Origin: Chryseobacterium contaminans
GTDB taxonomy: Bacteria; Bacteroidota; Bacteroidia; Flavobacteriales; Weeksellaceae
Direction: 5' to 3'
Assembly: GCF_001684955.1 (NCBI RefSeq)
Contig: NZ_MAYF01000112.1
Location: forward strand, 1-64,000
DNA: 64,000 bases
This document shows, piece by piece, positions 5,839 through 32,380 of the stretch. The stretch's first letter is position 1; each line of letters starts with the position of its first letter. The notes beneath the pieces were generated by a model that worked only from the letters and a program-made list of their open reading frames with translations, did not search any database and was not told where the DNA came from. The translations under genes and the position numbers were made by a program.

Positions 5839-5880
5839 AAGAGTTCTAAATAAGAACGTTTTAATTTAAAAAATAAATAA

Positions 5881-7101: not shown

Positions 7102-7116
7102 GAATACAAAAACATA

Positions 7117-7153: not shown

Positions 7154-7190
7154 ATGATCTGAACTTTCAGAGTGAAAGTTAATTTTTATT

Positions 7191-8222: not shown

Positions 8223-8265
8223 AATCTATTTAAACTAATATCACCGTCTAAATCCGGTAACTATT

Positions 8266-8949: not shown

Positions 8950-9006
8950 GTCTATAGGATTAGAAGATGAAAAGGTATTAAAGAAGAAATTAAAATCTAA
9001 ATGATC

Positions 9007-9915
9007 TTAGATCTGGCTTTTGATTTCTGCCATTAATTCTTTTCCGCCATTTTCCAGCACTACTTTTGCAAATTTTTCTCCAAAATTTTCTGTAGAGTTG
9101 TATATAAAGTTCTCATCAAGAGCAATGCAGTTTTTACCATCCAGAGAGCAAAGCGCTGCTGTAAAGCGGATCTGATTCTCGATAATTTCAGCAAAAGCTC
9201 CGATAGGTGCGGTACATCCTCCTTCTAAAGTGCTTAGAAAATTTCTTTCAATTTCTACACAGATCTGGGTTGGCTGATGATTGATCTGTTTCAGTATTTC
9301 ATTGATCTCCGGTTTATCGGAATGTCCTGCAACCGCAATAACGCCCTGAGATGGGGCCGAAATCATTACCGGAAGCATTTCATAATCAATTTCCATTTTC
9401 ATTCTTTTGATCCCGGCTAAAGATAAGATAGTGGCATCAAAATCTCCATCTTCAAGTTTTTGAAGACGGGTCTGGATATTTCCACGGATGTCTGAAAACT
9501 CAGTGTTCGGGAAATGTCTTAACCAGAAAGCTCTTCTTCTTAAGCTGCTTGTGGCAAGCTTCAGTTCGTGAAGTTCTTTGTTCTTTGCAGATTCTTTTCT
9601 GATCAGAATGTCTTGGGGATAATCTCTTTCCAGATAGGCTACCATCTCAATATTCTGAGGTAACAGGGTAGGGACATCCTTTAAAGAGTGAACAGCAATA
9701 TCAATTTCATCATTCAATAAGGCTACATCAAGGTCTCTTGTGAAAACCCCTGTGATTCCTAATGAATATAAAGGTTGGTTCAGGTTCTTATCGCCAGAAG
9801 AAACGATAGGAACAATTTCCGTTAAATAATTGTTGTTCTGAAGGTGCCTCGCAACCTCTCTAGCCTGCCAAAGTGCAAGTGCGGAATTTCTTGTTCCGAT
9901 TCTAATGCTTTTCAT
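9007..9915 (-). CDS. hemC: Hydroxymethylbilane synthase (porphobilinogen deaminase)
   Basis: This enzyme polymerises four porphobilinogens. The ATG at 9915 gives MKSIRIGTRNSALALWQA, the canonical N-terminus; a longer reading from a TTG at 9939 is possible but unneeded. Conserved blocks are SSGDK, the HSLKDVPT motif near residue 80, the TSSLRRRAFW block, and the dipyrromethane-cofactor cysteine in LEGGCTAPIGAF (about 231). The start overlaps the hemA stop by 14 nt, indicating translational coupling. Confidence 0.95.
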   Translation of the reverse strand: MKSIRIGTRNSALALWQAREVARHLQNNNYLTEIVPIVSSGDKNLNQPLYSLGITGVFTRDLDVALLNDEIDIAVHSLKDVPTLLPQNIEMVAYLERDYPQDILIRKESAKNKELHELKLATSSLRRRAFWLRHFPNTEFSDIRGNIQTRLQKLEDGDFDATILSLAGIKRMKMEIDYEMLPVMISAPSQGVIAVAGHSDKPEINEILKQINHQPTQICVEIERNFLSTLEGGCTAPIGAFAEIIENQIRFTAALCSLDGKNCIALDENFIYNSTENFGEKFAKVVLENGGKELMAEIKSQI

Positions 9916-11176
9916 TGAATTCGTTGTTTGGTTGTTCAACTAATATTTCGTGCATTAATTTACTAATTTCTTCGGCTTTTAAAGGGTTATCGATGATATA
10001 TTTTGCAAAACGGTTGGTGATCTTCTGGATCATTTTATCAGAAAGTTCCATATCCGTGATGTCTATATATTTATTTTTCTTGTAAAAGTTATGCATTTCA
10101 TTGCGTTCCATGTTCTTTAACACCGCTTTGAAATGATGAATGTTTGGTGCCAGCTTTCTTTTTTTCTCCCATTCAATAAAATCTTTCATCAGTTCCTTGA
10201 TGATCTTCTCTGCTTTAGGAATTTCTTTTTCCCTTTGCTGGATTGTTTCCTGGATCTGTTTTGAAAGCTCATCAACATCTATTAAGGTTACATTTTTATT
10301 TTCTGTAACATTCTTTTCAACGTTGTGAGGAATAGAAAGGTCAATCACCAATGTTTCTTTTCCGTTCGGGAAATGCGATTGATTAATGATGGGGTGCTTT
10401 GCCCCGGTAGCCACGATAAGAATATCCGTGTCTTTTAATTCCTTATCAACATCAGCATAATCAACATGAGGAATATTATATTTTTGGGAAATTTTTTCAG
10501 CTTTTTCCTGGGTTCTGTTCGCAATTTTAATTTTAGGCTGATAAACATGTTTTACCAGATTTTCCACCGTATTCTGTCCAATCTCACCCACACCAAGAAG
10601 AAGAATATTCTTTTCGGTAATTCTCTTCTGATTATTTAGGATATAATGAACGGCTGCATAAGAAACAGAAGCTGCACCATTGGAAATTCCGGTTTCATTC
10701 TTGATCCTTTTGGAAATCTGAATAGCAGCATTGATGGCTCTTTCCAGATATGGATTAGAATTTTGTCTTTCCTTTTTAAAACGGGCGTATGCTTTTTTGA
10801 TCTGGCCAATAATTTCAAAATCTCCAATAATCTGGCTCTCAAGACCAGCGGCTACTCTGAAAAGATGTATTAAAGCCTCTTCTTTGGTTAAGATATTGGC
10901 AAACTGAAGAAAATCCGTAAGATTTACTCCAATGGTTTTGCAATATTCTTCTGCTACTAAAAGATAATTGGAAGAGGTAGTATAGATCTCAGTCCTGTTA
11001 CATGTGGAAACCACAAATGCATCCCCAAGGTCTTCCTGATGGACGCGGGAAACAAAGTTTTTGATGTTTTCATCAAAGAATGCAAACTTTCCTCTCGTTT
11101 CTACATCGGCCTTTTCGTAGCTTATGGAAAGCACGGCAAAATTCGATGTTTGATGGATGTTGGAATACTGTAACAT
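9902..11176 (-). CDS. hemA: Glutamyl-tRNA reductase
   Basis: This is the first committed enzyme of C5-pathway tetrapyrrole synthesis, reducing Glu-tRNA(Glu) to glutamate-1-semialdehyde. It has 424 residues from ATG 11176. Seen: the catalytic-cysteine motif VVSTCNRTEIY near residue 52, the NADPH-binding fold with LLLGVGEIGQNTVENL, and the C-terminal dimerisation helix region. I reject the TTG 12 nt upstream because it lies within the -7 box TAAATTTG. The mRNA would then be almost leaderless. It heads the operon hemA-hemC-hemD-hemE. Confidence 0.94.
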   Translation of the reverse strand: MLQYSNIHQTSNFAVLSISYEKADVETRGKFAFFDENIKNFVSRVHQEDLGDAFVVSTCNRTEIYTTSSNYLLVAEEYCKTIGVNLTDFLQFANILTKEEALIHLFRVAAGLESQIIGDFEIIGQIKKAYARFKKERQNSNPYLERAINAAIQISKRIKNETGISNGAASVSYAAVHYILNNQKRITEKNILLLGVGEIGQNTVENLVKHVYQPKIKIANRTQEKAEKISQKYNIPHVDYADVDKELKDTDILIVATGAKHPIINQSHFPNGKETLVIDLSIPHNVEKNVTENKNVTLIDVDELSKQIQETIQQREKEIPKAEKIIKELMKDFIEWEKKRKLAPNIHHFKAVLKNMERNEMHNFYKKNKYIDITDMELSDKMIQKITNRFAKYIIDNPLKAEEISKLMHEILVEQPNNEFNEKH

Positions 11177-11185
11177 AAGCAGTGG

Positions 11186-11193
11186 CAAATTTA
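11186..11193 (-). promoter_or_regulatory. -7 box of the hem operon
   Basis: TAAATTTG on the minus strand, 9 nt before the hemA ATG. Its position argues for the 11176 start. Confidence 0.5.
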
Positions 11194-11528
11194 CGTTTTT
11201 TTTAATTAATGATCCTCTGATAGTATATATGATAATTATCGTAAAAAACTATGATTACAAACTCTATTAAATGAAGAAGGTAAAAGTTCAAACTCCGGAT
11301 TGTTAAAGCTAATTTTATAAATACGCTTATTGATTTACTTTTATAGGTGTTTTTAGAGTTCAGATTCTCCCATTAATTTTAGTTGAAATCAAACTCTGTA
11401 ATTATCTAAACAGAAAGTTAATAAAGAATTATAAATTTTAATAAAATTTTAACCAAATTAAGTTGTGTTGAAATTTCTTTCGTAGTGTTAAATTTATATC
11501 TTTGTAAACTTAAAATCAGAAGAAAAAT
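11194..11528. other. Divergent intergenic region hemA/mreB
   Basis: About 335 nt of very AT-rich DNA between two divergent operons. It ends in the mreB promoter. No ORF, hairpin or RNA gene worth calling was seen. Confidence 0.5.
11497..11504 (+). promoter_or_regulatory. -7 box of the mre operon
   Basis: TATCTTTG, perfect TAnnTTTG, 24 nt before the mreB ATG. Confidence 0.5.
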
Positions 11529-12554
11529 ATGAGTTTATTTGATATGTTTACGCAAGAAATTGCGATAGACCTGGGAACAGCCAATACCCTTATTATCCAT
11601 AATAATAAAATTGTTATAGATCAACCGTCAATTGTTGCAATTGAACGCTCTACGGGTAAGCCTATTGCTGTAGGTGAACAGGCTAAGCATATGCAAGGGA
11701 AAACTCACGAAGATATTAAGACCATCCGCCCATTGAAAGATGGGGTTATTGCAGATTTCCACGCTTCTGAACATATGATTAAGGAATTTATCAAGAAAAT
11801 TCCCGGAATTAAAGGTAAATTCATACAGCCTGCATTAAGAATTGTAATCTGTATTCCTTCTGGTATTACTGAAGTTGAAAAAAGAGCGGTAAGAGACTCT
11901 GCTCAGAAAGTAAACGCAAAAGAAGTAAGATTAATCTATGAACCAATGGCAGCTGCTATAGGAGTTGGGATTGATGTACAGAAGCCTGAAGGAAATATGA
12001 TCATCGATATAGGTGGAGGTACCACTGAAATTGCTGTTGTAGCTTTAGGAGGTATTGTATGTGACAAATCTGTAAAAATTGCAGGAGACGTATTCACCAA
12101 TGATATTGCTTATTACTTAAGAACTCACCATAACCTTTATATCGGGGAAAGAACGGCTGAAAGAATTAAAATTGAAGTAGGTTCTGCTGTAGAAGATCTT
12201 GATGTAGACATCGAGGATATCCCGGTACAGGGTAGAGACCTTATCACAGGTAAGCCTAAAGAAATTATGGTAGGGTATAAAGAAATTGCCCGTGCATTAG
12301 ACAAATCTATCATCAGAATTGAAGATGCTGTAATGGAAACTCTTTCCCTTACTCCACCGGAATTGGCTGCTGATATTTATAAGACAGGTATTTATCTTGC
12401 CGGAGGAGGTGCATTGTTAAGAGGTCTTGCGGACAGAATCCACAAAAAGACAGGTCTTCCTGTTTTTGTAGCAGAAGATCCGTTGAGAGCTGTAGTTCGT
12501 GGAACTGGTATTGCCCTTAAGAATATGGATAAATTCAATTTCTTAATTAAATAA
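11529..12554 (+). CDS. mreB: Rod-shape-determining actin homologue MreB
   Basis: A 341-residue bacterial actin that forms membrane-bound filaments steering the elongation peptidoglycan machinery. Actin-fold phosphate-binding motifs are visible: phosphate 1 IAIDLGTANTLI, phosphate 2 IIDIGGGTTEIAVVALGG, and the adenosine motif IYLAGGGALLRGL. Length is typical. It leads the operon mreB-mreC-mreD-mrdA-rodA, with mreC 28 nt downstream. Confidence 0.97.
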   Translation: MSLFDMFTQEIAIDLGTANTLIIHNNKIVIDQPSIVAIERSTGKPIAVGEQAKHMQGKTHEDIKTIRPLKDGVIADFHASEHMIKEFIKKIPGIKGKFIQPALRIVICIPSGITEVEKRAVRDSAQKVNAKEVRLIYEPMAAAIGVGIDVQKPEGNMIIDIGGGTTEIAVVALGGIVCDKSVKIAGDVFTNDIAYYLRTHHNLYIGERTAERIKIEVGSAVEDLDVDIEDIPVQGRDLITGKPKEIMVGYKEIARALDKSIIRIEDAVMETLSLTPPELAADIYKTGIYLAGGGALLRGLADRIHKKTGLPVFVAEDPLRAVVRGTGIALKNMDKFNFLIK

Positions 12555-12582
12555 TTTTAACTTTTTACGACTGTATATCTGA

Positions 12583-13437
12583 ATGGGATTTTTGCTGAGA
12601 TTATTTTCGAAGAACACACTTTTTGTCTTCTTTATATTCCTGCAAATTATTGCTCTGGTTCTGATATTCTCTAGAAATGCCATGCAGAGATCCTGGATTG
12701 CGGGCCAAACAGCTGCATTGAATTCATGGATTTCCGGGTATATTGATGAAGGGGTTTCTTATCTGAAGCTAAAACAGATCAATGAAGATCTGGTAGTTCA
12801 GAATAAAGCTCTTATGGCAGAACTTTATGGAAAAGACGGGACGAAAAACCCTGTTTTCAAAAGAGTACATGATACCATTGGAGGCGGTCAAATCTATACT
12901 TTTGTTGATGGAGAAATTGTTTTTAACAGTATCAACAGAAGAAATAATTACTTTACAATCAACCGTGGCCGCAGAGACGGAGTCTTCCCTCAAATGGGGG
13001 TAATGGCGCCTAGAGGTATTGCTGGGATTGTTATCAATTCTACAGACAGTTATGCACTGGTTCAATCTGTATTGAGTGTCAATAAGATCAGAATTAATGC
13101 ATCACTGAAAAATTCCGGATATTTTGGAACCTTAACATGGAACGGAGATAATTCCAGGGTAATGCACCTTGCAGATATTCCGAAATATGTTGCTTTAAAA
13201 GTGGGAGACACTGTTGTAACAGACGGAAAATCTGCCATCTTCCCGAAAGGGGTAATGATTGGAACCATTGCCGGATATTCAGTAGATAATAAAACCGGTT
13301 TCTGGGATATTTCTGTGGAACTGAGTGAAAAAATGGGTGCATTGAGTAAAGTGTATGTCGTTAAAAACCTGAAAAAAGCTGAAGTGCAGAAAATTCAGGA
13401 CACGATGCAGGCTGTAATAAAAAAGGAAAATGATTAG
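12583..13437 (+). CDS. mreC: Rod-shape-determining protein MreC
   Basis: A 284-residue inner-membrane protein with one N-terminal transmembrane helix (about 10-28, LFVFFIFLQIIALVLIF), a coiled-coil segment around 60-80 and a periplasmic double beta-barrel core (NRRNNYFTINRGRRDGVFPQMGVMAPRGIAGIV). It links MreB, MreD and the PBP2-RodA synthase. Its last 8 nt overlap the mreD start, so translation is coupled. Confidence 0.93.
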   Translation: MGFLLRLFSKNTLFVFFIFLQIIALVLIFSRNAMQRSWIAGQTAALNSWISGYIDEGVSYLKLKQINEDLVVQNKALMAELYGKDGTKNPVFKRVHDTIGGGQIYTFVDGEIVFNSINRRNNYFTINRGRRDGVFPQMGVMAPRGIAGIVINSTDSYALVQSVLSVNKIRINASLKNSGYFGTLTWNGDNSRVMHLADIPKYVALKVGDTVVTDGKSAIFPKGVMIGTIAGYSVDNKTGFWDISVELSEKMGALSKVYVVKNLKKAEVQKIQDTMQAVIKKEND

Positions 13438-13936
13438 CAGGACTTTATTTACCGATATATTAATCATGATCTTTCTTGTTGCATTACAGATTTTTGTATT
13501 GAACAGGATTACTATTTTCGGGAAATATACTCCGGTATTATATCCTGTATTTGTCATGTTCTATCCTTTTTTCAGAAATAAATTTCAATTTCTGGCATTA
13601 AGCTTTTTAATAGGATTATCTATTGATGGTTTCCTCTATTCGTGGGGAATTAATGCCTTTGCAACAACGCTGATAGCTTATTTCAGAACGTTGATATTCA
13701 GAACGTCTACGGATACATCCACAGACTTTTTCTCTTTTCAGTCCCTGCAATGGGCGCAGTTTTTGCTGTTTTTATTTTCAAGTATTTTCCTGCATCAGCT
13801 TTTAGTGCAATATATTGAGTTCTTTAAGTTCAGCAGGTTTTTTGAAATTTTGTTTAATGTTTTGGTGACTAGTGTAATTTCATTTATATTTATCGTTATC
13901 TACGCATTAATATTTAAAATCAAACAAAAAGTTTGA
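13430..13936 (+). CDS. mreD: Rod-shape-determining protein MreD
   Basis: A 168-residue hydrophobic protein with about five predicted transmembrane segments (FTDILIMIFLVALQIFVLN, VLYPVFVMFYPFF and others). Sequence alone is weakly conserved. Size, hydrophobicity and position between mreC and mrdA make the assignment secure. The start overlaps mreC by 8 nt and the stop overlaps the mrdA start by 4 nt. Confidence 0.9.
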   Translation: MISRTLFTDILIMIFLVALQIFVLNRITIFGKYTPVLYPVFVMFYPFFRNKFQFLALSFLIGLSIDGFLYSWGINAFATTLIAYFRTLIFRTSTDTSTDFFSFQSLQWAQFLLFLFSSIFLHQLLVQYIEFFKFSRFFEILFNVLVTSVISFIFIVIYALIFKIKQKV

Positions 13937-15981
13937 ACACACGTTATTTAAAAATTTTTTCCATTCTAGTTGTTATCGCCCTTATTTTTGTGGCGAGACT
14001 TGCGTATTTACAGTTGTTTACAGACCGTTATGCGCTGAATGCTGCCAATACTTCCATTAAAATAGAATATGTAATTCCTCAGCGCGGAGTTATCTTTGAC
14101 CGAAACGGAAAAATCATGGTAGGGAACCAGCCTGCATATGAAATTTCCTTTACTCAGGCTTTAATGAAACCTGATTTTGATACATTAGGCTTTTGCAGTC
14201 TGATGAAGATTTCTAAAGCAGATTTCATCAACAAGATCAATGTCATAAAAAAGGAAAAATACTATTCTAAACTGACTCCTATGACCTTTTTAAAGGATCT
14301 CAGCAGAGAAGATATTGCAAGGGTTCAGGAGATTATTTTTAAATATCCTGCCTTTAATATTGTACAGAGACCTCAGCGTCAATATGAAGTTTCTACCTCC
14401 GGAAACCTTTTAGGATATACCAGTGAAGTAAATGAAAGAGAGATTAAAAAGGACTCTCTCTATTACTTACCTGGAGATTTTATCGGAAAAACAGGGGTGG
14501 AGAAGTCTTATGAGAAGGAACTTCGTGGGATAAAAGGGATGAAGTATATCCAAAAAGATATCAGACTTAGAAATATAGGGTCCTATAAAAACGGAGCTTT
14601 AGATAAGGATGTAGTTACCGGTAAAGATATCACTCTTACTATTGACTATGATCTTCAGAGAACCGCAGAAGAAATGCTTGTCAACAAGCACGGAGCAGTG
14701 GTAGCTATAGATCCTAATAATGGTGAAGTGCTGGTTGCGGCAACCGGACCGGATATTGATCCCAACCTTTTCACCGGACCTAATAAATCTAAAAACTTAT
14801 ATGCCCTGTCAAAAGATACGCTTTATGAAAATAAACCTACTTTTGACCGTTCTTTACAGGCGGGATATCCTCCGGGGTCCACTTTTAAACTGCTAACGGC
14901 TTTGGCTGCAATGCAAATGGGAGTGATGGATGAAAAGACTATTTTTCCTTGTGGAGGAGGTTTCTTCTATAAAGGAAAAAGAATTAAAGGCCACGGTGGA
15001 GCTGATCCGCTTATCCCTTCTATTCAGGTTTCCAGTAACTGTTTCTTTACGTATGCATTTATTGCCATTATCAAAAAATATCCAGGAAATCCTTCAAAAG
15101 GCGTTGATGAATGGAAAAAGATTATGAGCAGCTTTGGAGTTGGAGAGTTTTTAAATAATGACTTTGCGGTGGGTGCAAAAGGAAGAATTCCTTCTGGAGA
15201 CTTTTATGAGAGAAGGTTTAAAGCTATTATGAAAGCCAGCGGATCTCAGAGAACAGACTTTAAAAACTGGGATGAAATGTCAACAGGTGCCATTTATAAT
15301 GGAATGGGGCAGGGAGATGTTCTGGTAACTCCTATTCAGCTGGCTAATTATGTGGCTGCTATTGCCAACAGAGGATGGTATTATACGCCCCATATTGTGA
15401 AGGCCATTGATGGGAAGCCTAATCCAGATCCAAGATTTAAGGTTAAGCATAAAACTCTGGTAGATCCAAAACACTTTGAACCTGTTTTAAAAGGGATGGA
15501 AGCTGTAGTTTTAAGAGGAACAGCAAGAGGATTGAAGTCCAATGATTTTACACAGCTGGCGAAAACAGGTACAGCACAGGTTCCACAAGGAAAGGATAAC
15601 TCTATCTTTGTATTGATTGCTCCTGCTGAGAAGCCAAAAATTGTTGTGGTTGCCGTAATGGAACATGCAGGATTTGGGGCTACATGGGCAGGGCCTGCTT
15701 GTACGGTGATTGCTGAGAAATATATTACCGGAGATCTGAAAAGAGAACATCTGTATAAAAAAATGATAACCTCTAGTTTCATGCCGGAATACAAAAGGCA
15801 ATGGATTGCAGATTTGAAACGTAAAGGGCTTTATAAAGATCCTAAGCCTGATTCAATTAAACAAAAAAGAATAAAAGATAGCCTGGATCTTATTAAACAA
15901 CAGAAAGCCAAACTTCAAAAGAAATTAGAAGAAGAGAAGGCCAAAAATAATAACACTGCTAAAAAAACTGTTAAGCAATGA
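13933..15981 (+). CDS. mrdA: Penicillin-binding protein 2, elongasome transpeptidase
   Basis: A 682-residue class B PBP that cross-links peptidoglycan during elongation. One N-terminal transmembrane helix (IFSILVVIALIFVARLAYL) is followed by the pedestal domain with the QRGVIFDRNGK motif, then the transpeptidase domain: SxxK in PGSTFKL (Ser about 316), SxN in VSSNCF, and KTG in LAKTGTAQ. The C-terminal tail is a long Lys/Glu/Gln-rich stretch. The start is TTG, inside a TTGA overlap with the mreD stop. No in-frame ATG precedes the membrane helix, so the rare start is required. Confidence 0.94.
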   Translation: MNTRYLKIFSILVVIALIFVARLAYLQLFTDRYALNAANTSIKIEYVIPQRGVIFDRNGKIMVGNQPAYEISFTQALMKPDFDTLGFCSLMKISKADFINKINVIKKEKYYSKLTPMTFLKDLSREDIARVQEIIFKYPAFNIVQRPQRQYEVSTSGNLLGYTSEVNEREIKKDSLYYLPGDFIGKTGVEKSYEKELRGIKGMKYIQKDIRLRNIGSYKNGALDKDVVTGKDITLTIDYDLQRTAEEMLVNKHGAVVAIDPNNGEVLVAATGPDIDPNLFTGPNKSKNLYALSKDTLYENKPTFDRSLQAGYPPGSTFKLLTALAAMQMGVMDEKTIFPCGGGFFYKGKRIKGHGGADPLIPSIQVSSNCFFTYAFIAIIKKYPGNPSKGVDEWKKIMSSFGVGEFLNNDFAVGAKGRIPSGDFYERRFKAIMKASGSQRTDFKNWDEMSTGAIYNGMGQGDVLVTPIQLANYVAAIANRGWYYTPHIVKAIDGKPNPDPRFKVKHKTLVDPKHFEPVLKGMEAVVLRGTARGLKSNDFTQLAKTGTAQVPQGKDNSIFVLIAPAEKPKIVVVAVMEHAGFGATWAGPACTVIAEKYITGDLKREHLYKKMITSSFMPEYKRQWIADLKRKGLYKDPKPDSIKQKRIKDSLDLIKQQKAKLQKKLEEEKAKNNNTAKKTVKQ

Positions 15982-17207
15982 AATGGACAGAAGGAATAGA
16001 TAAACTTGGCCTTGGGCTGTATTTCCTGCTTTGCATCTTTGCTATTGCGAATATTTACAGTGTTGACCAGAAACTTGGAGAAAAACAGTTGATGTTTTTC
16101 TGTATCTCTGTATTTGTAGGACTTATCATATTTGTAGGAAGAAGTAAGTTCTTTGAAAATATGGCAGGTATTATTTATATAGGCGGGGTACTCTTGCTGA
16201 TAGGACTTTTCCCTTTTGGAAAGGAAATTTTAGGACAAAAGAACTGGTATAAGTTCGGAAGCTTTACCATGCAGCCTGTTGAATTTGCTAAAATTGGTAC
16301 TGCTTTGATGCTTGCAAATTATGTTTCCGGACCTGATTTTAATCTTAAAAATAGAAAATCTTTATTTACGGCTTTAGGGATTATCGGTATACCGGCGGCA
16401 GTAGTACTGGCTATTCCGGATGTGGGATCTATGCTCGTATTCATTGCCTTCTTTATTGCTTTGTACAGAGAGGGGCTAAGTGGTTTGCTGTTTGGGATAG
16501 GTTTTATTTTTGCGGCTGTATTCTTAATAGCCTTAGCAATACCGCCAGTGTATGTAGCAGCAGCTATTTTAATTATCGCCGGTGTTCTGATCGCGATGAA
16601 CTACCATAGAATGTCCTGGGACGTGATTTCTATTTCGGGGATCGCAGGATCTATTCTTTTATTATGCGGGCTTGCATTCGGTTCACCTTATATTTTAGAA
16701 AAATTGCCTAAGCACCAGAGAGAAAGAATTGAAGTTCTTTATAAAGGTGAAAAAGCATTTAGAGATACTTCGGGATACAACTTATTATATTCCAAAACTG
16801 CAATCGGATCGGGAGGTCTTTTAGGAAAAGGATACCGTGAAGGGTCGGTTACCCAGGGGAAATTCGTTCCTGAGCAAGAGACCGATTATATTTTCTGTAC
16901 CGTAGGGGAAGAATGGGGGTTTGTGGGAAGTGCTATCCTGATCTTATGTTACATGGTCTATATTGGACGGATCTATTATCTTGCTGAACAACAGAAATCC
17001 ACTTTTAATCGTGTATTTGGGTATTGTTTTGCATCTATCCTTCTGATGCACTTTTCCATCAATTTAGGGATGGTTATGGGGCTTTTTCCAACGGTAGGGA
17101 TTCCGCTTCCTTATTTCAGTTATGGAGGAAGTTCTTTGCTGGCCTTCTCTATGATGACTTTTATTTTCTTTAAACTTAATTATTCGGATAAGAACAGCTT
17201 AGTATAG
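15978..17207 (+). CDS. rodA: RodA SEDS-family peptidoglycan polymerase
   Basis: A 409-residue SEDS glycosyltransferase with about ten membrane segments, partner of PBP2. Characteristic stretches are WYKFGSFTMQPVEFAKIGTAL, the GSGGLLGKGYREGSVTQGKFVPEQETDYIFCTVGEEWGF region (split here only by description) with the conserved Gln-Glu-Thr-Asp-Tyr, and the C-terminal GIPLPYFSYGGSSLL signature. ATGA overlap with mrdA shows tight coupling. It ends the mre operon. Confidence 0.95.
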   Translation: MKWTEGIDKLGLGLYFLLCIFAIANIYSVDQKLGEKQLMFFCISVFVGLIIFVGRSKFFENMAGIIYIGGVLLLIGLFPFGKEILGQKNWYKFGSFTMQPVEFAKIGTALMLANYVSGPDFNLKNRKSLFTALGIIGIPAAVVLAIPDVGSMLVFIAFFIALYREGLSGLLFGIGFIFAAVFLIALAIPPVYVAAAILIIAGVLIAMNYHRMSWDVISISGIAGSILLLCGLAFGSPYILEKLPKHQRERIEVLYKGEKAFRDTSGYNLLYSKTAIGSGGLLGKGYREGSVTQGKFVPEQETDYIFCTVGEEWGFVGSAILILCYMVYIGRIYYLAEQQKSTFNRVFGYCFASILLMHFSINLGMVMGLFPTVGIPLPYFSYGGSSLLAFSMMTFIFFKLNYSDKNSLV

Positions 17208-17292
17208 AGCTATTTCCCAAACGATTTGACTTATTTTTAGATCTGCAGAATGTGTGGATGCTATTCTGATACCTATAAATCACTATATTTTT

Positions 17293-17874
17293 ATGAAAGA
17301 TGCTTATATTTTAGATCAACATTTTGAAAATACAGATTTTGTGCAGTTTCCACTTGAAAAAGGAGAGTATGAAAACTGTACTTTTAAGAATTGCAGTTTT
17401 GAATATGGAAATTTGTCCGGTTTTAGTTTTACAGACTGTGAATTTACAGGTTGCAACCTCAGCATGACAAAGATTGGCTCAACAGCCTTTCGTAATGTTC
17501 TTTTTATAGAATGTAAAATGCTGGGTTTACAGTTTAATGATTGTAACGTTTTTGGTCTGTCTTTTAAGTTTGATGGCTGTGTGCTCAACAATTCTGTTTT
17601 TTACCAGACCTCTATAAAGAAAACTGTTTTTAAAAATTCAAAGCTGATTGAAGCAGATTTTACAGAATGTGATTTATCAAATGCTGTCTTAAATAACTGT
17701 GATCTGTCAGGAGCTGTTTTCGATAATACTAATCTTGAAAAGGCAGATTTGAGAACTTCTGTTAACTATTCCATAGATCCTGTTTTAAATAGGCTTAAAA
17801 AGGCCAAATTCTCACTTTCGGAAGTTCATGGACTGTTGTATAAGCTGGATATTAAAATAGACAAGAATAGCTAG
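17293..17874 (+). CDS. Qnr-like pentapeptide repeat protein
   Basis: From ATG 17293 the protein has 193 residues; a GTG 39 nt upstream is in frame but less likely. Residues about 25-165 are consecutive pentapeptide repeats of the A(D/N)LXX type rich in Cys and Phe (CTFKN CSFEY GNLSG FSFTD and so on), predicting a right-handed quadrilateral beta helix. The C-terminus (IDPVLNRLKKAKFSLSEVHG) resembles the helical cap of Qnr proteins, which mimic DNA and protect gyrase from quinolones. Whether this one does so is inference. It lies 85 nt after rodA, probably separately expressed. Confidence 0.82.
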   Translation: MKDAYILDQHFENTDFVQFPLEKGEYENCTFKNCSFEYGNLSGFSFTDCEFTGCNLSMTKIGSTAFRNVLFIECKMLGLQFNDCNVFGLSFKFDGCVLNNSVFYQTSIKKTVFKNSKLIEADFTECDLSNAVLNNCDLSGAVFDNTNLEKADLRTSVNYSIDPVLNRLKKAKFSLSEVHGLLYKLDIKIDKNS

Positions 17875-18003
17875 CTTATGAAGCTAGATGCTGAATGCGG
17901 GTATTTCTGAAAAGCCCTTTTAGGCAGAAGATATATTAAACGTTAATTAAATTCAATAGAAGCGGGTTTAGCCCAAGCTTAATAAAAAGTATAATGCATA
18001 AAA

Positions 18004-18030
18004 AAGCCATCAGGAATTCTGATGGCTTCA
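18004..18030 (-). terminator. Terminator of the NlpC/P60 gene
   Basis: Perfect 10-bp stem AAGCCATCAG / CTGATGGCTT with a 5-nt loop. On the minus strand it is followed by a run of T. Confidence 0.82.
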
Positions 18031-18055
18031 TTATTTAAATCAATTATTTATAAAA

Positions 18056-18766
18056 TTAAAAATTTGCTGGGGTAGCTTGAGTAGTAGAAGCCAGATTATT
18101 ATAAGCTTCCCCTTCTGCATTGATTACTCTTTTTGCGAATCTGAACTTAGGTCCCCAATAAGAATCATTCAGTGAAGAAATCATTACTCCTTTAGATGTT
18201 GCTGCGTGGATAAATTTGATCTCACCTTCCTCAGTAACACTTTCTACAATACCTACGTGAGAGATTCTTCTTCCATGAGAAAAGAAGATTAGGTCTCCTT
18301 TCTGTAATTCCCCTTTTTCAACTCTTTCCCCTTCCTGAGCCTGAGAAGCCGCTACTCTTGGTAAAGTAAGACCTGCTGCAGCCCCGAATACAGAAAGAAC
18401 GAAAGCTGAACAATCAATACCTCTTCTTGTAGTTCCTCCGTATCTGTAAGGAGTTCCAAGGTATGTTTCAGCTTCTTCAAGGATACCGTCGATGGTTTTA
18501 TTATATTTGATTGCTTTTGCAATCTCAGAATTCTTAACAGCTTTTTTAGCATTTGCGATAGATGCCGCTTTTTCAGCAAGGAAAGAGTCAATTAATTTCT
18601 GCTTATCTTGCTCCATTTTTTTGTTGTCAATAGAAGCTAGTTTGGCATCTGTTTTGTATTCTTTACTGTAAGTTGCTGGTTTTGAAACCACATAATTAGT
18701 AGCACACGATTGCATTGATACTGTAGTAACTAAAGCAACTAAATAAAACAAAACTCTTTTCTTCAT
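18056..18766 (-). CDS. NlpC/P60 (C40) peptidoglycan endopeptidase lipoprotein
   Basis: This 236-residue protein has a lipoprotein signal (MKKRVLFYLVALVTTVSMQSC), a short charged helical linker and a C-terminal NlpC/P60 domain (about 95-215). Catalytic residues are visible: Cys in RRGIDCSAFVLSVFG, His in RISHVGIVES and the third polar residue His in KFIHAATSKGV. It likely cuts D-Glu to diamino-acid bonds in the murein stem peptide, like Spr/MepS. It is a single gene with its own promoter and terminator. Confidence 0.92.
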   Translation of the reverse strand: MKKRVLFYLVALVTTVSMQSCATNYVVSKPATYSKEYKTDAKLASIDNKKMEQDKQKLIDSFLAEKAASIANAKKAVKNSEIAKAIKYNKTIDGILEEAETYLGTPYRYGGTTRRGIDCSAFVLSVFGAAAGLTLPRVAASQAQEGERVEKGELQKGDLIFFSHGRRISHVGIVESVTEEGEIKFIHAATSKGVMISSLNDSYWGPKFRFAKRVINAEGEAYNNLASTTQATPANF

Positions 18767-18817
18767 ATATATTTGATTAACCGTGTTAAAATGGAATATT
18801 TATTTTCAAAAGCATTA

Positions 18818-18825
18818 CAAAAGTA
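18818..18825 (-). promoter_or_regulatory. -7 box for the NlpC/P60 gene
   Basis: Minus strand TACTTTTG, matching TAnnTTTG, about 50 nt before the start. Confidence 0.4.
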
Positions 18826-18917
18826 GAGATTCCAAGCAAAAGACCCCTGATATGATAATTGTCAGGATCTCATTTTAACACTATTTAACATATTATTTAC
18901 ATATGTTAAAGAAAAAT

Positions 18918-18960
18918 AAACCGCAACTGCCTATTTTTGGCAAGCCTGCGGTTTTTTTTA
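18918..18960 (+). terminator. Orphan terminator-like hairpin
   Basis: AAACCGCA ... TGCGGTTT with an inner TGCC ... GGCA pairing and a run of eight T on the + strand. No annotated + strand gene ends before it, so it may close an unannotated small RNA. Confidence 0.55.
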
Positions 18961-19209
18961 TTAAGATTCTTTAACAAAATCTATCGATTTTCTTCTATAA
19001 ATCACGTTTTGTAATTTAAAACTCTAATTTTCAGGGCTGTTAAAAAAACAAAATAAACTTTACTAAAACCCTTTATTGATAAGGGTTTTAAGGGTGCTTT
19101 GCTTTTGGCTTTAAACCTTATGTCACTTTTTGATCTAAAATCAGAGTTGAATAAATATTTTGTTTAAGAAGTTTCTAAATCTTAACAAAGTGGAGTGGTA
19201 AAGGCAATA

Positions 19210-27136: not shown

Positions 27137-27319
27137 TTAAAGACCTCCACCGCACGCATCACATTCGATCAACGGGTAAATCCATGTACCATCTTCCTGC
27201 TGAAATGGCATATTTCTGCATCCGATTTTTCTTACTCCGTTGCTGTCAATATAAAAACATTGATCAGGGCGGATTCCGCCGTTAATTTTAGCCGTTTCTT
27301 TTCTCGTTAACTTTTTCAT
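27137..27319 (-). CDS. GG-leader bacteriocin-like peptide, copy 2
   Basis: A 60-residue peptide. The leader MKKLTRKETAKINGG is identical to that of its neighbour and ends in the double-glycine site recognised by peptidase-containing ABC transporters. The predicted 45-residue core starts IRPDQCFYIDSNG and has four cysteines (CFY, GCR, ECDACGG). The family is common in Chryseobacterium as bacteriocin-like protein. No transporter, immunity or modification gene is adjacent. It is likely co-transcribed with copy 1, 52 nt upstream. Confidence 0.75.
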   Translation of the reverse strand: MKKLTRKETAKINGGIRPDQCFYIDSNGVRKIGCRNMPFQQEDGTWIYPLIECDACGGGL

Positions 27320-27371: not shown

Positions 27372-27563
27372 TTAAAGATCTCCTGTGCATGATTGGCATT
27401 CATGTCCTGGAAGTGGATAAATCCATCCGCCGCAACAATCCGGAACGGGGCCTACCTGGCATCCAAGTTTTCTCTTGCCTGTGTTAGGATCAGTGTAAAA
27501 ACATTGTCCCGGTGCAATACCACCATTAATTTTCGCAGTTTCTTTTCTTGTTAACTTTTTCAT
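27372..27563 (-). CDS. GG-leader bacteriocin-like peptide, copy 1
   Basis: A 63-residue paralogue of the adjacent peptide. The 15-residue leader is identical. The core (IAPGQCFYTDPNTGKRKLGC...) has six cysteines, including a Cys-Cys pair in PDCCGGWIYPLPG and a CQSC pair near the end. The shared framework is QCFY(I/T)D, a Gly-Cys, GWIYPL/TWIYPL and a terminal CxxC. A -7 box TATATTTG lies about 24 nt upstream. Tandem duplication with core divergence is the simplest history. Confidence 0.75.
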   Translation of the reverse strand: MKKLTRKETAKINGGIAPGQCFYTDPNTGKRKLGCQVGPVPDCCGGWIYPLPGHECQSCTGDL

Positions 27564-28768: not shown

Positions 28769-29689
28769 TTAACTTTCAAGATAGCGGTTCAGAGATTCCT
28801 GGAGATGATTACGGATGTCATCAACTAAACATTTCGGTTCTAATACGGTTACCTCTTTTCCATAAGATAAAATCTCCTGCATAAAGTCATAAGTAGGATG
28901 AAGGAAAAATTCAAAATAGATTTCTTCCGGAGTTTCTTTTGTTTCTTTCTGAGATTGATGAAGCGGAAAACTTCTGATGTATTCTCCCTGATGACGGCTG
29001 CATTTTAATACAATATTCTGCGGTTTCTGTTCTGCCAGATTCATTACTCCAAAAGCATTTTTAAAATGCTCTCTGAAATTATATTTATACTTTTCTCTGA
29101 ACTGGTTTTTAGCTACATCCAGATAATTGATCCTGTCTAATCCAAATGATTTTAAAACCTTATCCTTGGTATCAATGGCGATGAGGTACCATCTGTCTTT
29201 TGATTCTTTTAAGGCTAAGGGATGAACCTTTCTGGAAGTCATCAGTTTGTTTTTGTAATTGTAATGTTCAAAGGTTACCACTCTTTTGTTACGGATGGCA
29301 AAAAAGAGATCATAAAAATGTTCTATACCGGTTGGTTTACGGCTTTCAAAGAAAATAAAGTCTGAAAAATCCGGATGAAGATTCAGGGCATTGCTTACCT
29401 GGAAAGATTCCAGAAGTTTTTGGTTGTATTCATCCACTTCCATGATGGGGCGACTTTCGATATAGTATCGGTTATCACCTTTTTTCTTGTTATGAATGGA
29501 AAGGTTGAAAAGGTCTGAAATCTCACGGATATCTCTCTGCAAGGTACGGATAGAATAACTTTTGATCCCGGCATCCTGGAATTCAAAAGAATTTAAAAGA
29601 TAATCTTCCAGCTGGGAATAGGTAGCCGGAGAACTTTCTAATCTTTTAATAATTAAGGCATATCTTGTGAGATAAAAATCTTTCTTCAT
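28769..29689 (-). CDS. WYL-domain transcription regulator, candidate controller of the island
   Basis: This 306-residue protein starts at ATG 29689; a GTG 18 nt upstream falls in the -7 box and is rejected. An N-terminal winged HTH (about 1-65, with SYSIRTLQRDIREISDLF as the recognition region) is followed by a WYL domain (about 118-185; HPLALKESKDRWYLIAID) and a WCX-like C-terminus. WYL regulators bind nucleic-acid or nucleotide ligands and control defence (CapW, BrxR) or DNA-damage genes (PafBC). Its own promoter carries the repeated island element, so autoregulation and control of the neighbours is the natural inference. Confidence 0.88.
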   Translation of the reverse strand: MKKDFYLTRYALIIKRLESSPATYSQLEDYLLNSFEFQDAGIKSYSIRTLQRDIREISDLFNLSIHNKKKGDNRYYIESRPIMEVDEYNQKLLESFQVSNALNLHPDFSDFIFFESRKPTGIEHFYDLFFAIRNKRVVTFEHYNYKNKLMTSRKVHPLALKESKDRWYLIAIDTKDKVLKSFGLDRINYLDVAKNQFREKYKYNFREHFKNAFGVMNLAEQKPQNIVLKCSRHQGEYIRSFPLHQSQKETKETPEEIYFEFFLHPTYDFMQEILSYGKEVTVLEPKCLVDDIRNHLQESLNRYLES

Positions 29690-29706
29690 GGTAAAATTTT
29701 GTACCA

Positions 29707-29746
29707 CAAATATATGGGCTTAATGCGACAAAACGTGTCGTATTTT
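29707..29746 (-). promoter_or_regulatory. Island promoter 1 (WYL regulator)
   Basis: Reading leftward: element 29725-29746 containing the perfect inverted repeat CGACA-N5-TGTCG (29726-29740), then exactly 14 nt from its TTTG to the -7 box TATATTTG (29707-29714), then the WYL ATG 17 nt on. Confidence 0.75.
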
Positions 29747-29800: not shown

Positions 29801-30055
29801 TTGAATTATTGGTCAAAATACTCTGAGAATAATTCTCATCTATTCTTTCAAAAATAGATTGTGATTTGGTTATATGCGAAGCTTTGTGAGATTGCTTCAG
29901 AATCTTTGGCCTTGTTTTTAGTGGTCGCAGACCGAATTTCCACTTCTGGGTTATATTTTTCAGACAGAGTTCTGGCTGTCCAACATTTTGTGAATGGCGA
30001 TTCAAAGGTGTTGATGTAATGAGACTGTTGTGTGTATTTAGAGACTTTAAAGATA
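29776..30055 (-). pseudogene. Decayed duplicate of the acidic-protein unit, or a small RNA
   Basis: Between island promoter 2 (-7 at 30048-30055) and the terminator at 29776-29800 lies a ~260-nt transcription unit. Its sequence around 29950-30015 matches the 5' end of the acidic-protein gene at 30290-30355: shared words on the minus strand are CCTTTGAAT, CATTCAC, ACAGCCA and AAATATAACC, in the same order. Single-base indels shift the frame, the ATG is TTG, and no ORF uses a start inside the transcript. The acidic C-terminal half is absent. Either a dead copy kept with its promoter or a non-coding transcript. Confidence 0.5.
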
Positions 30056-30087
30056 ATGGCAGACAGCATCAGAACTTGTCGTATTTT
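30048..30087 (-). promoter_or_regulatory. Island promoter 2 (decayed unit)
   Basis: Element 30066-30087 (most divergent copy, GCATCAGAACTTGTCGTATT), 14 nt, then TATCTTTA (30048-30055), one mismatch from TAnnTTTG. It begins 11 nt past the acidic-gene ORF. Confidence 0.6.
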
Positions 30088-30097
30088 TTATAATTAT

Positions 30098-30346
30098 TTA
30101 AAAGATATCTTCTTCAAGAATGTCTTCTTCAAAATCCTGTCTGAAGAAATTTTCAATGTCGTTGAGATAGTTTTCATAATCCATCTCAGCATTTTCGATG
30201 TCACTCCATTCCACGGTGTAGAGGTCTTCATCGAAGAGTATATCTGTGTTGTGATTGGATGTTTCCATGTTTTGTATTGTGATTTGGTGTTGGTTATATT
30301 TTGAACATACTTGTGGCTGTTCAGCATAGGTGAATGATGAATTCAA
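30098..30346 (-). CDS. Small highly acidic protein of the island
   Basis: An 82-residue protein with 21 Asp/Glu and only one Lys and one Arg. The first 35 residues are polar (MNSSFTYAEQPQVCSKYNQH...), and the remainder is nearly all acidic and aromatic (DILFDEDLYTVEWSDIENAE, ending EEDILEEDIF). No known domain is recognised. Very acidic small proteins can be DNA mimics or partners of DNA-binding proteins, but that is speculation. Coding status is supported by a good ATG, an island promoter 50 nt upstream, and preserved frame in contrast to the decayed copy. Confidence 0.6.
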   Translation of the reverse strand: MNSSFTYAEQPQVCSKYNQHQITIQNMETSNHNTDILFDEDLYTVEWSDIENAEMDYENYLNDIENFFRQDFEEDILEEDIF

Positions 30347-30396
30347 AGGCGTTTTTAAATTTTTATTGATAGTTGTTTTGTGTTATTGTGATACTC

Positions 30397-30436
30397 CAAA
30401 TATAGTGGGGTAATGCGACAAAACTTGACGTATTTA
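30397..30436 (-). promoter_or_regulatory. Island promoter 3 (acidic protein)
   Basis: Element 30415-30436 (GCGACAAAACTTGACGTATT), 14 nt, then TATATTTG (30397-30404). The acidic-protein ATG is 50 nt downstream. Confidence 0.75.
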
Positions 30437-30504: not shown

Positions 30505-31542
30505 TTATATTTTATTTTTGATGAGTTTCTGGACGATCTGATTCAGGATTTCTCTGTTGTCATCAATATAGCTTAATCCGGCCTGGATCAAATTTTCAAT
30601 ATTAGACCGTCTTACATTATCCATTGCGGGAGAAGCGTTTTTCAATGAAGGATTCAGACGGTAATAGTTTTTCTGGTTTCTCAGTCCCAGTGTCTGGAAC
30701 ATTTGGGAAAGCTGATAATCTACAGTTTCTGCATTGGCAGACATCAATATATCAATAATTGGGTTTACCCAGCCTATTTTTCCGGCTTTTTCCAGTTTTC
30801 TAAAAGAATAAGGTCTCGCCTCAATGCCGGTTCCGATGGATATAATAATCATATCATTTACTCCGGGATGATTGGCTTTCTGGTGGTTTTTTAAAACTTC
30901 TGCAAAAGGAATCTTTCTGGCTTCTGCATAGGCACAAAGGGCGGGATTATTCGCAAACATACCGCCGTCAATCAGGCTGAAGATTTGCCCATACATTGAT
31001 TTGATCTGTACCGGGCTGAAATAGGTAGGCGCTGCGGATGTTGCCCTGCAAACATCTTTTACATAGAAATTATCCGTGCTGAGATGAGCTTCTGCTGAAT
31101 TGAAAAGCTTAGCTCTTCTGTTTTCTATATCATAACTTGTTATTAAACAAGGTTTTATTAATTCCTTTAATTCTAAATTTCCAAAAAAGTCATTCAGGTT
31201 TTTCTCAAGGGCTTCCTGAGAAATTCTTTCATTCAATAATCCAAATGGATTAACCAGTTTTTCCCAAAAGGAAACCTGGAAGATGTCGCCGCCCTTTTCA
31301 GCATATAATTCCAACCCTTTCTGGATAGAATATTTTGCTTTACGGACTTCATCGGGACATAGAATAATAGACGCAATCAGTCCTCCTGTGCTGCTGCCTG
31401 CCACCAGATCAAAATAATCTCCGAGCTTGGCACTCGGTTTATCATAATACTGGAGCTGTTCTTCTATGTAACGCAGAATAATACAGGTGATAATTCCCCT
31501 TATTCCGCCTCCGTCCAAAGAAAGAATGGTTGTCTTTTTCAT
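30505..31542 (-). CDS. Patatin-like phospholipase
   Basis: A 345-residue patatin with no signal peptide, so cytoplasmic and acting on the inner membrane. The oxyanion motif DGGGIRG is at residues 10-16, the nucleophile elbow G49-S-S-T-G53 has Ser51, and the catalytic Asp192 is in the IDGG motif (SLIDGGMFANNPA). The stand-alone single-domain layout matches CBASS effectors of the CapV type, but no cyclase or other CBASS gene is nearby. It is controlled by an island promoter with a ~120-nt leader. Membrane damage by lysophospholipid release is the likely effect. Confidence 0.9.
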   Translation of the reverse strand: MKKTTILSLDGGGIRGIITCIILRYIEEQLQYYDKPSAKLGDYFDLVAGSSTGGLIASIILCPDEVRKAKYSIQKGLELYAEKGGDIFQVSFWEKLVNPFGLLNERISQEALEKNLNDFFGNLELKELIKPCLITSYDIENRRAKLFNSAEAHLSTDNFYVKDVCRATSAAPTYFSPVQIKSMYGQIFSLIDGGMFANNPALCAYAEARKIPFAEVLKNHQKANHPGVNDMIIISIGTGIEARPYSFRKLEKAGKIGWVNPIIDILMSANAETVDYQLSQMFQTLGLRNQKNYYRLNPSLKNASPAMDNVRRSNIENLIQAGLSYIDDNREILNQIVQKLIKNKI

Positions 31543-31669: not shown

Positions 31670-31709
31670 CAAAGGTAGGACGGAGAAGCGACAGAACTTG
31701 ACGTATTTT
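31670..31709 (-). promoter_or_regulatory. Island promoter 4 (patatin)
   Basis: Element 31688-31709 (GCGACAGAACTTGACGTATT), 14 nt, then TACCTTTG (31670-31677). The patatin ATG is 127 nt downstream. Confidence 0.75.
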
Positions 31710-31731: not shown

Positions 31732-32232
31732 TTAAAAAACAACATAATTCTGTTGATCTCTCTGCATCTTCAAAAGCGTTCTCCAATGGGTTTTAACGGT
31801 CTTTTTCTTTAACGGAATTGTCTTTTTTTCAAAGTGAGGAAGATCTTTAAAAGTTTTCCAATTTCCGCCCCAGTCCCAGCCATGTTTTGCGAAGATTTTC
31901 ACACATTCATACCAATCTGCTACCTTGTCGTTATCCCAGTCTTTTACAGTGTCCCAGCTGGCTGTTTTTCCATCAGTTATCAGGCAGATATCCACAGCGA
32001 AGCCATAATTATGAATACTTTGTCCCGCTTTGGCATTGGTTACTTTTTTACCTGATGTAATTCTTCCAATTGCGTAAAGTCTTTCCTGCTCTTCAAAAGA
32101 CCTTAAGCCCTGAGTGATCCTTACCTTGGCTCTACCGGTGAGTGCTTCGTCACATTCCTTAATAATTTGTTTCATTTCATCTCTTACCGATGGGTGAAGG
32201 CTGTTAATTCGTTCCAATGTTACTTTATCCAT
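31732..32232 (-). CDS. Phage-type M15 L-alanyl-D-glutamate endopeptidase (endolysin-like)
   Basis: A 166-residue metallopeptidase from ATG 32232; the TTG at 32253 is inside the -7 box. M15C residues are clear: QSIHNYGFAVDI gives His74 and Asp81, followed by WDWGGNW (about 119-125) and LPHFE with His133. This is the layout of phage endolysins such as that of T5 and of CwlK. No signal peptide or membrane anchor is present, so it needs help to reach the wall. It is under an island promoter next to the patatin. Confidence 0.9.
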   Translation of the reverse strand: MDKVTLERINSLHPSVRDEMKQIIKECDEALTGRAKVRITQGLRSFEEQERLYAIGRITSGKKVTNAKAGQSIHNYGFAVDICLITDGKTASWDTVKDWDNDKVADWYECVKIFAKHGWDWGGNWKTFKDLPHFEKKTIPLKKKTVKTHWRTLLKMQRDQQNYVVF

Positions 32233-32250: not shown

Positions 32251-32290
32251 CAAAAGTAGAAGCAGGAAGCGACAAAACTTGACGTATTTT
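32251..32290 (-). promoter_or_regulatory. Island promoter 5 (M15 endolysin)
   Basis: Element 32269-32290 (GCGACAAAACTTGACGTATT), 14 nt, then TACTTTTG (32251-32258). The endolysin ATG is 18 nt downstream. Confidence 0.75.
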
Positions 32291-32340: not shown

Positions 32341-32380
32341 CAAAGCTATACTCCTAATGCGACAAAACATGTCGTATTTA
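32341..32380 (-). promoter_or_regulatory. Island promoter 6 (orphan, beside umuC)
   Basis: Element 32359-32380 with the perfect repeat CGACA-N5-TGTCG (32360-32374), 14 nt, then TAGCTTTG (32341-32348). It fires leftward into promoter 5; only a MMVFN mini-ORF lies between. It may be the relic of a lost gene, or may act divergently on umuC. Confidence 0.65.

What the first reader, a model, noticed from the sequence alone, without database searches (positions are those of the whole stretch)
30098..30346. Extremely acidic 82-residue protein in the regulon
21 acidic versus 2 Lys/Arg residues, with the acidic residues concentrated in the C-terminal two thirds together with aromatics. Under an island promoter. 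Such composition is seen in DNA-mimic and anti-regulator proteins; it might antagonise the WYL regulator or the endolysin.
Basis: partly seen in the sequence, partly recalled or inferred. Interest (0 to 1): 0.58.

Follow-up and report, generated by a model that had tools for sequence, protein, structure and literature searches.

The report
Small acidic protein of toxin island
A short, strongly acidic protein is a real, conserved gene of Chryseobacterium that shares its promoter type with a wall-cutting enzyme, a phospholipase and, in most relatives, large variable proteins of which some carry toxin domains; what it does at the molecular level is still a guess.

Summary
The acidic ORF is real, but it is 56 residues (ATG at 30268), not 82: the first 26 TTG-started codons are leader. 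The 56-codon frame is under strong purifying selection (pN/pS 0.09/0.52), the extension is not (0.48/0.52). It occurs in 55 of 58 other sampled species of the genus and 3 of 19 species of other genera of the family, without a convincing database match. It lies in a Chryseobacterium island: M15 endolysin, patatin phospholipase, acidic protein, variable cargo cassettes with toxin domains in relatives (lost here), WYL regulator. Five intact promoters share CGnCA-N5-TGTCG-N11-TAnnTTTG; the spacing is invariant (197 of 211 sites), as at promoters of the DNA-damage WYL activators DriD/PafBC. Half of the acidic leaders examined match cargo leaders; no M15, patatin or WYL leader does. In 80 genomes the acidic gene never occurs without M15, patatin and WYL (58 of 58). 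I read it as an accessory of a DNA-damage-induced, lysis-released toxin system, most likely a chaperone/adaptor of the cargo; an inhibitor of the lysis enzymes is nearly as likely. The anti-WYL idea is weakened, not excluded.

The parts
30098..30268 (-). gene of the 56-aa acidic protein (ATG 30268, stop included)
   Evidence: ATG, stop and frame conserved in 30 loci, own included; pN/pS 0.092/0.523; homologs in 55 of 58 other same-genus genomes, two of them broken
30269..30346 (-).
   Evidence: pN/pS 0.477/0.520, in-frame stops in 4 of 30 loci and 15 of 80
30295..30353 (-). leader element also found in cargo-cassette leaders of relatives
   Evidence: partial repeat of 29954-30012 in the window; present in 10 of 20 acidic and 6 of 9 cargo leaders and in no M15, patatin or WYL leader
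30397..30432 (-). WYL-type promoter of the acidic gene (CGnCA-N5-TGTCG-N11-TAnnTTTG)
   Evidence: 0 mismatches to the bipartite pattern; fixed spacing
29848..30083 (-). decayed second cassette: degenerate promoter 30048-30083 and leader 29954-30012, no conserved gene recognised
   Evidence: promoter with 3 mismatches; in many relatives a second promoter about 340 nt further on precedes cargo genes
28769..29692 (-). WYL+WCX transcription regulator
   Evidence: Pfam WYL 2.8e-13, WCX 4.3e-08; best PDB-chain hits 7p5x_AY 5.7e-06 and 9fnd_X 5.8e-06
29707..29742 (-). promoter of the WYL gene (same pattern)
30505..31542 (-). patatin-like phospholipase, similar to CBASS effectors
   Evidence: Pfam 8.4e-26; PADLOC effector 1.7e-61; PDB patatin-17 2e-34, CapV 8zr9 1.1e-22
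31670..31705 (-). promoter of the patatin gene (same pattern)
31732..32232 (-). M15 peptidase of endolysin type; first Met at 32232 (one search lists it from an upstream TTG)
   Evidence: Pfam Peptidase_M15_4 6.2e-19, PHROG endolysin 8.3e-30
32251..32286 (-). promoter of the M15 gene (same pattern)
32341..32376 (-). second promoter of this pattern upstream of M15; it points away from the Y-family polymerase gene at 32492 (+)

Best explanation
The feature is a 56-aa, probably helical, acidic protein (net -19) made from one of five promoters of one type in a conserved Chryseobacterium island. Shown by sequence: real gene; bipartite promoter with invariant spacing; island content (M15 endolysin, patatin phospholipase, WYL regulator, variable cargo cassettes in relatives, some with toxin domains). 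Inferred: the WYL protein is a DriD/PafBC-like activator that turns on these promoters after DNA damage (ssDNA signal); the phospholipase opens the inner membrane in place of a holin, the M15 enzyme cuts the wall, and the cell bursts and releases large toxin/carrier proteins. Inferred, with the least support: the acidic protein is a trans-acting accessory of this release system, most likely a small chaperone/adaptor that keeps the ~1200-aa carrier or its toxin partner soluble or assembled before lysis. The window's genome has lost the local cargo cassette but keeps the acidic gene.
For: Real gene. Promoter: 197 of 211 sites have TAnnTTTG exactly 10 nt after TGTCGC, the other 14 have none within 40 nt; 14-23 sites per genome against 0-1 for the reversed pattern in 6 genomes. 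Toxin domains: of 10 large or downstream cargo proteins scanned, Tle1-like 7.8e-14, Tox-MPTase4 1.7e-10 and 6.3e-14, DUF3990, DUF2931, DUF6402 one each, 4 without a match. Link to cargo: 10 of 20 acidic and 6 of 9 cargo leaders carry the shared element above the shuffle maximum, against 0 of 19 patatin, 0 of 16 WYL, 0 of 18 M15, 0 of 3 DUF2589; cargo lies in the downstream 8-kb flank of 59 of 80 named loci; acidic gene intact in 39 of 42 islands with local ~1200-aa cargo but 13 of 21 without, Fisher p 0.004 on 61, 0.028 when two second islands are added; one locus (L227) has acidic gene plus cargo with no M15, patatin or WYL in its 14 kb. The protein stays conserved while the toxin ends differ.
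Against: The acidic gene persists in 5 of 80 genomes without a ~1200-aa cargo hit at E <= 1e-10, this one included. Two main islands with cargo lack it (G222, G287), one has only a doubtful divergent stand-in (G315), and second islands in G180 (L101) and G099 (L237) have cargo, M15 and patatin (pieces or whole) but no acidic gene. 19 of 20 distal cargo loci lack it, so a cargo chaperone would have to act in trans. By genome-level presence it matches M15 (5 of 80 discordant) better than cargo (10 of 80). The 3 carriers measured are themselves acidic (-28 to -46), although 2 of 3 toxin-end proteins are basic (+5, +7). The predicted helix is not significantly amphipathic (shuffle p 0.19) and the model is of low confidence (pLDDT 71, pTM 0.33). 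Counts are not corrected for phylogeny. No expression, lysis or binding data exist here.
Confidence: 0.32

Rival explanations
1. Inhibitor or timing factor of the lysis enzymes: the acidic protein binds the basic M15 enzyme (or the patatin) in the cytoplasm and delays lysis until enough cargo has been made.
For: M15 is basic (+8, pI 9.4), patatin +4, acidic protein -19. In 80 genomes the acidic gene is never found without M15 (58 of 58) and M15 gives the fewest discordant genomes, 5. G011 and G226 lack both M15 and acidic gene, and G029 lacks M15 and has only an acidic remnant, while all three keep patatin and WYL.
Against: M15 is present without a recognised acidic gene in 5 genomes (G045, G144, G222, G287, G315) and with a broken one in 2 more (G009, G037), so it is not needed as an antidote. 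No M15 or patatin leader carries the element shared with cargo.
Confidence: 0.29
2. Anti-activator or DNA mimic: the acidic protein binds the DNA-binding face of the WYL regulator and shuts the regulon down as negative feedback.
For: It is under the same promoter type as the regulator, very acidic, and in 80 genomes never found without a WYL ortholog (58 of 58).
Against: WYL orthologs persist in 7 of 65 genomes without an intact acidic gene of this family; the HTH half of WYL has net charge -1; only one long helix is predicted, at low confidence, with no compact fold; composition alone is weak evidence.
Confidence: 0.13
3. Structural or effector component: the acidic peptide is itself part of the released material or a small effector or signal peptide.
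For: Cassette position next to cargo; two or more copies in some genomes (G014, G019, G035, G039, G049).
Against: Strong conservation across species is unlike a polymorphic toxin or its immunity protein; no secretion signal seen by eye.
Confidence: 0.12
4. Not a protein: the conserved stretch is a regulatory RNA or a chance frame.
For: Long leader; translation has not been observed. No Rfam family matches the window, which speaks neither way.
Against: pN/pS 0.09/0.52 in this frame; the other two frames of the same strand give 0.146/0.158 and 0.156/0.122.
Confidence: 0.02

Closest known systems
Type 10 secretion / T10SS lysis release (Yersinia entomophaga; PMC10847048, passages read)
   Same: Endolysin serving the release of very large toxins by lysis.
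   Different: No holin or spanin recognised here; a patatin phospholipase sits beside the endolysin; WYL regulator; extra acidic protein; variable cargo cassettes.
DriD and PafBC, WYL activators of the DNA-damage response (PMC12340889, PMC11804915, PMC6789036; passages read)
   Same: WYL+WCX domains; inverted-repeat site (as for DriD) at fixed distance from the -10/-7 element; several scattered target promoters.
   Different: Bacteroidota -7 element TAnnTTTG; targets are lysis and cargo genes; ssDNA sensing and activation untested.
CBASS phospholipase effector CapV and regulator CapW (PMC9122588, passages read)
   Same: A patatin similar to CapV next to a WYL regulator.
   Different: No PF18144 (SMODS) match in this draft genome; CapW is a repressor whose site overlaps the -10, here the site is upstream at fixed spacing.
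Polymorphic toxin systems with swappable C-terminal toxin domains (recalled)
   Same: Conserved carriers followed by variable toxin ends and small downstream ORFs.
   Different: Lysis enzymes, shared WYL-type promoter and the acidic protein in one island.

Membership tests
DNA-mimic / anti-regulator protein | strong net negative charge in a small protein | tested here: met
   net -19 in 56 aa
DNA-mimic / anti-regulator protein | compact fold with a DNA-like charge surface | tested here: inconclusive
   AF2 pLDDT 71, pTM 0.33: helices 21-25 and 31-54 only
DNA-mimic / anti-regulator protein | binds and blocks a DNA-binding protein | not testable with these tools
   no complex prediction or binding assay available
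DriD/PafBC-type WYL-activated promoter | regulator site at a fixed distance from the -10/-7 element | tested here: met
   197 of 211 sites at exactly 10 nt, none at other spacing within 40 nt
DriD/PafBC-type WYL-activated promoter | WYL and WCX domains in the regulator | tested here: met
DriD/PafBC-type WYL-activated promoter | this WYL protein binds these sites | not testable with these tools
   inferred from position and co-occurrence only
DriD/PafBC-type WYL-activated promoter | ssDNA binding and activation on DNA damage | not testable with these tools
   needs biochemistry or expression data
T10SS lysis cassette | endolysin together with toxin cargo | tested here: met
   M15 endolysin, toxin domains in relatives
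T10SS lysis cassette | holin and spanin genes | tested here: inconclusive
   none recognised among the island proteins scanned, apart from one weak holin-profile hit (E 0.032) in a cargo protein; no transmembrane search was run
CBASS | CD-NTase partner of the phospholipase | tested here: not met
   0 matches of PF18144 in the window's genome; other nucleotidyltransferase families were not searched and the genome is a draft of 365 contigs
CBASS | CapV-type patatin effector | tested here: inconclusive
   PADLOC effector 1.7e-61, CapV 1.1e-22 but patatin-17 2e-34; below the NCBIfam cut-off, 161.5 of 200 bits

The most novel reading that the evidence does not exclude
A genus-wide, DNA-damage-triggered, holin-less lysis secretion system of Chryseobacterium: a DriD-like WYL activator fires scattered promoters of invariant geometry, a phospholipase plus M15 endolysin burst the cell, polymorphic toxins are released, and a dedicated 56-aa acidic protein, a family of its own, acts in trans on the toxin carriers or on the timing of lysis.
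Probability: 0.4. Interest if true: 0.75.

Novelty: new variant of a known kind. Interest (0 to 1): 0.5.

Why it matters
If true, a widespread genus carries an apparently undescribed, testable lysis-release toxin system, with a WYL activator whose target promoters can be read off a genome by one pattern. The acidic protein would be a handle on how such cells prepare toxins or hold back lysis. It would also place a CapV-like phospholipase outside CBASS, beside a toxin-release module.

Tried and rejected
ORF 29848-30069 (73 aa) as a partner gene: it starts at the decayed promoter, runs over the decayed leader and has no Pfam match; treated as remnant. SSB-tail mimicry of the C-terminus, an idea from recall: the last residues vary, dropped. 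CBASS: no PF18144 match. Y-family polymerase at 32492 as regulon member: the nearest promoter points the other way, so it is not used as evidence for DNA damage. Immunity protein of a toxin: the protein is conserved while toxin ends vary. Structure of the ~1200-aa carrier: mean pLDDT 56.6; one hit below 0.001 with TM-score 0.06 and many weak hits to viral capsid and other chains: uninformative. Amphipathic-helix test: not significant. Plasmid, PDB, Pfam (as the 82-aa frame), NCBIfam and PHROG searches with the acidic protein gave nothing convincing (best PHROG E 0.038, best PDB E 0.42); phage records were searched with the WYL protein only. Paper searches listed no paper whose title or abstract start describes the island; only the PMC open-licence library was searched, with these terms.

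The presence tables were entered by hand. From, 3 patatin-bearing genomes with contig breaks (G033, G039, G050) were dropped, and G026 (partial) and G315 (divergent) were left out of the Fisher test; it has one row per genome, so second islands (G180, G099) enter only. On re-checking, that weaker p (0.028) made me lower the cargo reading from 0.35 to 0.32 and raise the lysis-inhibitor reading from 0.27 to 0.29. The leader consensus was drawn by eye from acidic and cargo leaders, so it favours those classes. The 20 distal cargo loci are a choice from the places; one of them (L237) also holds M15 and patatin pieces. The carrier was folded as its first 1195 of 1213 residues because of the length limit.

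Full report
WHAT IS THERE. The window is DNA of Chryseobacterium or a very near relative: of 101 loci in named genomes that encode a relative of the acidic protein, the best 80 were kept and all 80 are titled Chryseobacterium. In relatives with complete sequences the island lies on the main chromosome contig. Thirty loci, the window's own included, keep an ATG at the position of 30268 and the stop. Over all pairs, pN/pS is 0.092/0.523 in this frame, 0.146/0.158 and 0.156/0.122 in the other two frames of the strand, and 0.477/0.520 in the 26 codons between the TTG and the ATG. The protein is therefore 56 aa: 20 D/E, 1 R, 9 aromatic residues, net -19. In the 80 named loci the start is ATG in 77 (the other three match starts were not looked into), the length 51-62 aa and the net charge -14 to -20.

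DISTRIBUTION. In 98 genomes (own, 58 same-genus, 39 same-order), 55 of the 58 match at E <= 1.5e-12; two (G011, G045) have no match and one (G029) only a 27-residue remnant; 0 of 39 outside the genus match below 0.01. With a profile, in 296 genomes of the order (own included): 24 of 28 other same-genus genomes, 3 of 19 genomes of the family outside the genus, and 2 of 248 beyond, the last two at chance level (E 0.002 and 0.008) inside long frames. Among the 55, G009 is split between two frames and G037 has an internal stop. No convincing match was found in Pfam, NCBIfam, PDB or plasmids; the best PHROG E-value is 0.038.

THE ISLAND. In relatives the usual order, in the sense of the acidic gene, is: promoter, M15 endolysin; promoter, patatin; in some a DUF2589 cassette; promoter, acidic gene; promoter, cargo cassettes; promoter, WYL regulator. 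Cargo consists of proteins with an 'FENGD..QEDFW.WQDSYWH' start, one of those scanned with LRR_5 repeats, ~1200-aa proteins with a 'TLFRFVSLR' start (13 aligned), and further large proteins. Of 10 of the latter or their neighbours scanned, 3 have toxin-type domains (Tle1-like phospholipase, Tox-MPTase4 twice), one each DUF3990, DUF2931 and DUF6402, and 4 no match. One of the 4 (L058) ends in a cysteine/histidine pattern that I read by eye as deaminase-like. In the window this cassette is gone: only a degenerate promoter (3 mismatches) and a leader copy remain at 29954-30083, and the genome has no match to the first 600 residues of a ~1200-aa protein at E <= 1e-10. The same genome has a second M15 gene under two such promoters next to large unidentified proteins.

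THE PROMOTER. The motif noted in the island is half of a promoter. Of 211 distinct sites in relatives' loci, 197 have TAnnTTTG exactly 10 nt downstream and the other 14 have none in the next 40 nt; a random 40-nt stretch has one in 2.8%. The sites come from related genomes and are not independent. With the full pattern, six genomes have 14-23 sites each against 0-1 for the reversed pattern. The site is an inverted repeat, CGnCA-N5-TGTCG, 11 nt before TAnnTTTG. [quoted passage not shown] PafBC reads a -26 motif through sigma adaptation on ssDNA binding (PMC11804915, passages). The repressor CapW binds over the -10 (PMC9122588, passages). The fixed geometry therefore favours an activator. That this WYL protein binds the sites, and that DNA damage is the signal, are inferences from these families. 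The Y-family polymerase gene beside the island is not evidence, because the promoter at 32341-32376 points away from it.

WHICH PARTNER? Genome-level presence in 80 family genomes (14 more same-genus genomes with the acidic gene were left out for the cap): acidic gene (broken copies counted) in 58; patatin in all 58 plus 8 others; WYL ortholog in all 58 plus 7; M15 in all 58 plus 5; ~1200-aa cargo in 52 of the 58 plus 4. At the island itself, 63 genomes judged: with local ~1200-aa cargo, acidic gene intact 39, lost 2, divergent stand-in 1; without, intact 13, lost or broken 7, partial 1 (Fisher p 0.004 on 61). Second islands in G180 and G099 have cargo and no acidic gene; with them p is 0.028. 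Acidic leaders carry the element found in cargo leaders in 10 of 20 cases (cargo 6 of 9), M15 0 of 18, patatin 0 of 19, WYL 0 of 16. Of 20 distal cargo loci, 19 have no acidic gene; one (L227, G136) has one (E 2.4e-14) upstream of cargo with no M15, patatin or WYL in its 14 kb. Some genomes carry two or more acidic copies. These facts tie the gene to the release system as a whole; leader, position and losses point to cargo, genome-level presence and charge point to M15. I commit to a trans-acting chaperone/adaptor of the cargo at 0.32, inhibitor of the lysis enzymes at 0.29, anti-WYL factor at 0.13.

STRUCTURE. AlphaFold2 on 25 homologs gives helices 21-25 and 31-54 and an unstructured start (pLDDT 71, pTM 0.33). 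The helix is not significantly amphipathic (shuffle p 0.19). Invariant residues in 25 rows are Y17 T18 W21 D23 I24 E25 D30 Y31 L35 F42: a conserved aromatic/acidic core fits a binding peptide, but this is inference.

COMPARISON. It works most like a T10SS, in which an endolysin releases huge toxins by lysis (PMC10847048, passages), but no holin or spanin was recognised and a patatin similar to CapV, and more so to patatin-17, stands next to the endolysin. It is not shown to be CBASS: no PF18144 match in the draft genome. Paper searches in the held library listed no description of this island (titles and abstract starts). SOS regulation in Bacteroidetes is described through other LexA-like repressors with other boxes (PMC8565304, passages).

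VERDICT. A real, correctly noticed but wrongly bounded gene; a new small protein family within an apparently undescribed variant of lysis-released toxin systems; mechanism of the acidic protein unproven.

Noticed in passing
window 27137-27319 and 27372-27563 (-): Two small ORFs (60 and 63 aa) starting MKKLTRKETAKINGGI, like double-glycine leader peptides of bacteriocins (recalled); no Pfam match.
   Followed up: partly
L223 (G000:C2:28000-47000), 4769-19001: Second M15 gene of the window's genome under two promoters of the same type, followed by unidentified proteins of 725, 1188 and at least 2265 aa; the first two have no Pfam match, the third was not searched.
   Followed up: partly
L049 2742, L053 5713, L051 5110, L052 4910, L050 7414: The same promoter type precedes a Por-tail protein followed by proteins that look like YD/RHS-repeat proteins by eye (two loci), two tailspike-like proteins (one with a pectate-lyase-like domain) and a DUF285 protein elsewhere in the genome: the regulon is dispersed.
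   Followed up: partly
L061 3840-5809, L055 8766-10666, L065, L092, L102: A three-gene DUF2589 cassette under the same promoter type next to patatin in some species; function unknown.
   Followed up: no
L141, L142: Two IMG/VR contigs carry this island beside phage genes: L142 129-1307 (-) is a tail sheath (PHROG 5.8e-40, DUF2586 9.3e-39). The island may lie next to a prophage there or have phage roots.
   Followed up: partly
window 30295-30353 and homologous leaders: A ~53-nt leader element (GAATTCA..ATGCTGAACAGCC) seen in acidic and cargo transcripts only, among the classes tested; possible translational control; no Rfam match.
   Followed up: partly
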